64,000 bases of DNA from Arenicellales bacterium (GTDB lineage Bacteria > Pseudomonadota > Gammaproteobacteria > BMS3Bbin11). Each line of letters starts with the position of its first letter. The first letter of the stretch is position 1. Below, piece by piece: positions 34,276 to 34,566 of this stretch. The position numbers and the translations under genes are program-made. The notes beneath the pieces were generated by a model. The model was not told where the DNA came from, did not search any database, and saw only the letters and a list, made by a program, of their open reading frames with translations. The DNA lies in the NCBI GenBank assembly GCA_029287915.1, contig JARFQE010000072.1, positions 1-64,000 on the forward strand, written 5' to 3'.

Positions 34276-34566
34276 GTTTCCCTGCAATCCATAGTTTGCC
34301 AAACAGAGCAATTTTAACATTGTTATGGTTTGAAATCAGAATAATAAATAGGATCCTGAAAGGAGTTACACTAGTATTAAAAAAAGACACAAACACGATA
34401 GATGTTTCACGTGAAACATTAACAGTGCGGTGGTTATCTATTCTGATTAAGATGGAATAATTGGATTGAGATGGTGAATCTTCAAAAGCAAGCTGCTAAA
34501 TAAGTGACTATAAGATTTGTTTGTGAAATCCATTGAATCTATCTGGTGTTATGAAGCTGATTACGA
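34276..34566. other. Gap where recF is normally found
   Basis: About 290 bp between gyrB and dnaN with no open frame or recF-like stretch. It is AT-rich and holds only the parS site. AAGGAG at about 34360 is followed by no ORF. Confidence 0.6.
34403..34418. promoter_or_regulatory. parS centromere-like site
   Basis: TGTTTCACGTGAAACA is a perfect 16-bp palindrome identical to the classical chromosomal parS sequence bound by ParB. It lies 2.8 kb from the dnaA/rpmH gap, where such sites are expected. ParA and ParB genes are not in the window. Confidence 0.93.

What the first reader, a model, noticed from the sequence alone, without database searches (positions are those of the whole stretch)
34276..34566. 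Perfect parS in the place of recF
TGTTTCACGTGAAACA lies in a short gap between dnaN and gyrB, where recF is usually located in gammaproteobacteria. No recF residue is visible. The site marks the chromosome-segregation region. Loss of recF suggests reduced gap repair or reliance on RecBCD/RecO.
Basis: partly seen in the sequence, partly recalled or inferred. Interest (0 to 1): 0.6.

Follow-up and report, generated by a model that had tools for sequence, protein, structure and literature searches.

The report
Centromere site that outlived recF
A perfect chromosome-segregation site (parS) sits where the repair gene recF used to be; in this class of bacteria such sites normally lie hidden inside recF and are usually kept when recF itself is lost, so the site is a survivor rather than a replacement.

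Summary
A perfect parS (TGTTTCACGTGAAACA, 34403-34418) lies in the 291-bp dnaN-gyrB gap. It is the only copy in the genome within 2 mismatches. recF is absent from this 95.7%-complete genome and from the relatives of its family examined. ParA, ParB, RecO and RecR are present; the double-strand-break enzyme looks AddAB-like, not RecBCD.

The reading needs correcting: parS did not take recF's place. Of 91 recF+ gammaproteobacterial loci, 89 carry exact parS in the dnaN-gyrB interval, 82 exactly two. In 73 analysed recF genes the sites are in frame (FHVE peptides) and their codons show almost no synonymous variation, so the DNA itself is selected. Of 37 recF-less genomes with dnaN next to gyrB, 29 keep at least one exact parS in the gap, 17 keep two. 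E. coli and Proteus, of a group reported to lack chromosomal ParABS, keep recF but not parS.

Best explanation: an ori-proximal centromere locus, ancestrally embedded in recF, outlived recF because ParB needs it. P. aeruginosa parS1/parS2 inside recF are already known; class-wide conservation and survival after recF loss were not found in the papers I could search. Function is inferred; the number of recF losses is unresolved.

The parts
34403..34418 (.). parS, perfect 16-bp palindrome TGTTTCACGTGAAACA, only copy in the genome
34276..34566 (.). dnaN-gyrB gap (291 bp), the position of recF in most Gammaproteobacteria; no recF similarity
34567..35676 (-). dnaN, sliding clamp
   Evidence: TIGR00663, 349 bits
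31864..34275 (-). gyrB, gyrase subunit B
   Evidence: TIGR01059 and PRK14939 over cut-off
35887..37245 (-). dnaA, replication initiator
   Evidence: TIGR00362, 564 bits
34310..34321 (-). AATGTTAAAATT, motif conserved upstream of gyrB across the genus; possible extended -10 of a gyrB promoter
   Evidence: genus alignment; no classical sigma-70 promoter found

Best explanation
The site is the chromosomal parS (ParB loading site, bacterial centromere) of this Arenicellales-like gammaproteobacterium. It descends from the parS pair that most Gammaproteobacteria carry inside recF. recF was deleted in an ancestor of this clade, but at least one parS was kept because ParB, encoded in mnmG-rsmG-parA-parB elsewhere in the genome, must load at an origin-proximal site. 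By analogy with studied ParABS systems, ParB loads at parS, spreads, and the complex is moved by ParA so that new origins separate. Shown here: the site, its uniqueness, the absence of recF, the presence of ParA, ParB, RecO and RecR, the conserved in-recF sites of relatives, codon-level selection on them, and their retention without recF. Inferred: ParB binding, segregation function, and that this copy descends from the recF copies rather than having been regained at the same place.
For: parS exact and single. ParA-ParB in the classical mnmG-rsmG-parA-parB-atp order; ParB 191 bits; parS-type specificity residues R173 and G201 (Caulobacter numbering, PMC7383237) matched in the alignment to 6t1f. 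89/91 recF+ intervals hold an exact parS, 82 exactly two; spacing median 621 bp, always a multiple of 3; all in one frame, and CAC-GTG-GAA at the two sites are the six least variable synonymous codons of 81 conserved columns (normalised entropy 0-0.12; next 0.69; median 0.94). 29/37 recF-less syntenic genomes keep at least one exact parS in gaps totalling 6,675 bp; no match in 200 shuffled sets of those gaps. In the genus parS persists while most of the gap is unalignable; G007 of another genus has dnaN, then parS, no recF. Converse control: E. coli and Proteus recF have no parS within 2 mismatches, Aeromonas keeps the distal one; Enterobacteriaceae are reported to lack parABS (PMC4368675). 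Literature: P. aeruginosa parS1/parS2 lie within recF (PMC5521831, PMC3909081) and one ori-proximal parS suffices there (PMC4368675).
Against: No binding or segregation experiment. No recognisable recF DNA flanks the site, so descent from a particular recF site cannot be shown directly; reacquisition nearby is possible. Eight of 37 recF-less syntenic genomes have no exact parS in the gap: one (G301) has two one-mismatch sites, and in three (G102, G208, G293) parS lies near a parB elsewhere, so the position is favoured, not obligatory. The ParB-less control rests on two genomes read here plus literature. The recF+ loci were fetched through DnaN similarity or recF hits and are not a random sample.
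Confidence: 0.85

Rival explanations
1. parS was gained anew in the gap after recF loss, because origin-proximal intergenic DNA is a good place for a ParB loading site, and owes nothing to the recF copies.
For: The window's site has no recF flanks; its distance to dnaN differs among congeners (10 to 152 bp); parS has moved next to parB in some recF-less lineages; the recF-gyrB area is a hot spot for artificial parS insertion in Caulobacter (PMC5815017).
Against: Nearly all recF+ relatives already have parS in exactly this interval, so gain is unnecessary; retention of a pair is common in recF-less gaps (17 of 37); a new gain would have to hit the same interval across many families.
Confidence: 0.12
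2. The palindrome is a chance or decayed sequence without ParB function, or serves another regulator of gyrB or dnaN.
For: No experiment; ParB contact positions Q162, G170 and K171 are changed to H, S and R; a conserved promoter-like motif of gyrB lies about 80-90 bp away.
Against: An exact 16-mer conserved across the genus and class in a fast-changing gap, single in the genome, with ParA and ParB present.
Confidence: 0.03
3. recF is not lost but missing from the assembly or moved elsewhere.
For: The assembly is a 139-contig draft, 95.7% complete.
Against: dnaN and gyrB are contiguous on one contig with only 291 bp between them; three further congeners at 91-99% completeness also lack recF.
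Confidence: 0.02

Closest known systems
parS1/parS2 of Pseudomonas aeruginosa, inside recF (PMC5521831, PMC3909081)
   Same: Same palindrome type, same dnaN-gyrB interval, ParABS present
   Different: There two sites lie inside an intact recF and further parS exist elsewhere; here one site stands alone, with no recF and no other parS found in the genome
Bacteria lacking RecF but keeping RecO and RecR (Rocha et al. 2005, PMC1193525)
   Same: recF absent, recO and recR present; RecF is the least frequent of the three
   Different: In the passages read, that survey does not connect recF loss with parS sites
Caulobacter parS insertion hot spot over recF-gyrB (PMC5815017)
   Same: The recF-gyrB neighbourhood tolerates or favours a ParB loading site
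   Different: Artificial insertions in an alphaproteobacterium; the native parS cluster lies elsewhere

Membership tests
chromosomal parS site | 16-bp palindrome of the TGTTTCACGTGAAACA type | tested here: met
   exact match
chromosomal parS site | close to the replication origin | tested here: met
   2.8 kb from the dnaA start in the dnaA-dnaN-gyrB cluster; local GC-skew sign change near 36 kb; oriC itself not mapped
chromosomal parS site | ParA and ParB encoded in the genome | tested here: met
chromosomal parS site | ParB carries parS-type (R173, G201), not Noc-type, specificity residues | tested here: met
   alignment to 6t1f, read with PMC7383237
chromosomal parS site | bound by ParB and needed for segregation | not testable with these tools
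   needs ChIP-seq or genetics
recF-embedded parS pair of Gammaproteobacteria | site lies between dnaN and gyrB | tested here: met
recF-embedded parS pair of Gammaproteobacteria | site lies in frame inside recF | tested here: not met
   no recF in the gap or genome; it is the recF-less counterpart, not a member
recF-embedded parS pair of Gammaproteobacteria | two copies in the interval | tested here: not met
   one copy here; congener G003 has two, 722 bp apart

The most novel reading that the evidence does not exclude
The dnaN-gyrB interval is a fixed centromere locus of Gammaproteobacteria: a parS pair is selected there independently of the gene around it, recF was constrained to encode it in frame, the pair survives deletion of recF, and recF sheds the sites where ParABS is lost.
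Probability: 0.6. Interest if true: 0.55.

Novelty: new member of a known kind. Interest (0 to 1): 0.42.

Why it matters
It turns a curiosity (a segregation site in a missing repair gene's slot) into a testable rule: at this spot a DNA-level signal, not the protein, is what is kept. It is a clean example of a gene carrying a superimposed DNA code, explains an otherwise odd pair of FHVE peptides in RecF, offers a simple way to find the centromere in uncultured Gammaproteobacteria (look between dnaN and gyrB), and warns that recF deletions in such species also remove parS unless the sites are spared.

Tried and rejected
(1) The first recF query set was contaminated with DnaN reading frames; its 'recF' column is void and was redone with five verified RecF proteins. 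(2) Counting independent recF losses: a GyrB tree asks for 7-8 changes, a DnaA+DnaN+GyrB tree for 3, but AU tests do not reject one clade of the parS-keeping recF-less rows (p 0.48 and 0.38), so no number is claimed. (3) recF remnants in the gap: none; 'ATG TTT CAC GTG AAA CAT' reads MFHVKH like the end of RecF, but the palindrome dictates most of that, so it is not counted as evidence. (4) Promoter scan: no classical sigma-70 site for gyrB. (5) RecBCD: recB not over its cut-off. (6) Livny et al. 2007, the main parS survey, is not held in the library, so a prior description of part of this pattern cannot be excluded. (8) DnaA boxes are not enriched in the window as a whole.

Full report
Observation. 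The minus strand reads dnaA (37245-35887), dnaN (35676-34567), a 291-bp gap, gyrB (34275-31864). The gap holds one exact parS, TGTTTCACGTGAAACA, at 34403-34418; within 3 mismatches there is no other in the window and within 2 mismatches no other in the 2.78-Mb assembly. The gyrB start is taken as 34275 from the start in relatives. The congener G005 has the same gap sequence as a record titled 'Arenicellales bacterium' (L013), which places the genus.

Is recF gone? TIGR00611 gives only short Walker-A-type hits in this genome (best 28.7 bits against a cut-off of 172), and no match above the cut-off in six congeners and one member of another genus of the family. tblastn with five RecF proteins finds nothing in the gap. 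RecO (98 bits) and RecR (233 bits) are present. recB does not reach its cut-off; an AddA-like gene and a TIGR03623 gene (892 bits, weakly AddB-like) lie side by side on C81. So RecOR is there, and the double-strand-break enzyme looks AddAB-like rather than RecBCD. That RecF is the least frequent of RecFOR was reported in 2005 (PMC1193525).

Is there a ParB? Yes: mnmG-rsmG-parA-parB-atp on C51. Its alignment with Caulobacter ParB (6t1f) keeps the parS-specificity residues R173 and G201, while Q162, G170 and K171 are H, S and R (PMC7383237).

What normally stands in this place? In 91 recF+ loci with both dnaN and gyrB, the interval contains two exact GTTYCACGTGRAAC sites in 82, one in 6, four in 1, none in 2. 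These loci were fetched through similarity to the window's DnaN or through recF hits, so they are not a random sample of the class. In 73 recF genes all 136 in-gene sites lie in the same reading frame, in the middle of the gene (mostly VFHVEH) and near its end (mostly MFHVEH). The codons CAC, GTG and GAA at the two sites are the six least variable synonymous codons of 81 conserved columns (normalised entropy 0 to 0.12; the next is 0.69, the median 0.94). The spacing of the two sites is a multiple of 3 in all 82 cases, median 621 bp. The DNA sequence is therefore selected on top of the protein. For P. aeruginosa it is known that parS1 and parS2 lie within recF (PMC5521831, PMC3909081).

What happens when recF is lost? 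Of 370 class members sampled at 90% completeness or more, 72 had no recF hit at E 1e-15. About 18 of the 70 followed up also lack a true gyrB hit, so the region is probably missing from their assemblies and recF absence there is uninformative. In 37 recF-less genomes with dnaN next to gyrB, 29 keep at least one exact parS in the gap; 17 of these keep two, 25-106 bp apart in 16 and 722 bp apart in one; 200 shuffled sets of the same gaps gave no match. Of the eight exceptions, G301 has two sites with one mismatch; G360 and G161 have no ParB hit; G102, G208 and G293 carry parS near a parB elsewhere; G103 and G209 have gaps of only 22-34 bp. In the window's genus parS stays while the rest of the gap is largely unalignable, apart from a short AATGTTANAATT motif before gyrB.

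Converse control. recF of E. coli and Proteus has no parS within 2 mismatches; the peptides at the two positions read CFHNEP and MFTVEK or LFSVEH. Aeromonas keeps the distal site. Enterobacteriaceae are reported to have no chromosomal parABS (PMC4368675). So recF without ParB has dropped the sites, and ParB without recF mostly keeps them.

How often was recF lost? Not resolved. The window's family sits in a well-supported recF-less clade (13-14 rows, SH-aLRT 98-99), and a second group of 12 rows is also recF-less (99). Trees want 3 to 8 changes, but AU tests accept a single clade (p 0.38-0.48).

Mechanism. The site most likely acts as the centromere of this chromosome: ParB loads at parS and spreads, and ParA moves the complex so that new origins separate (established for ParABS systems; inferred here). 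A single origin-proximal parS is enough in P. aeruginosa (PMC4368675), which fits a genome with one copy. ParB effects on gyrB transcription are possible (ParB excess lowers gyrB in P. aeruginosa, PMC5521831) but secondary.

Verdict. The site is an ordinary parS in an ancestral position whose host gene has gone. The interesting part is the general pattern, which I did not find described in the papers available; the main parS survey (Livny et al. 2007) could not be read, so novelty is claimed only cautiously.

Noticed in passing
L155 (G111) 1244-1858: 14.3 tandem copies of a 43-bp unit, each with one parS (12 exact), directly upstream of gyrB (1926); dnaN is not adjacent, and no recF, recO or recR was found in that genome. 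A natural parS array of this size looks unusual.
   Followed up: partly
L095 (G003) and L097 (G002), dnaN-gyrB gap: In two congeners the gap holds two parS about 720-780 bp apart that form part of inverted repeats (34 bp perfect in G003, 19 bp in G002) around a repeat-rich insert.
   Followed up: partly
G293 (one contig, 3.7 Mb, 100% complete): No hit for recF, recO or recR: the whole RecFOR set may be missing from a genome of ordinary size; G103, G209, G360, G077 and G111 show the same with these models.
   Followed up: no
window 34310-34321: AATGTTANAATT upstream of gyrB is conserved across the genus and resembles an extended -10 element, perhaps a gyrB promoter of its own.
   Followed up: partly
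L203 (G000:C81) 3030-9225: AddA-like (1237 aa) and TIGR03623 (AddB-like, 911 aa) genes side by side; no recB over its cut-off.
   Followed up: yes
L204 and L205 (E. coli and Proteus records of PLSDB): 4-5 Mb records with chromosomal dnaA-dnaN-recF-gyrB are filed as plasmids, so that collection holds some chromosomes.
   Followed up: no
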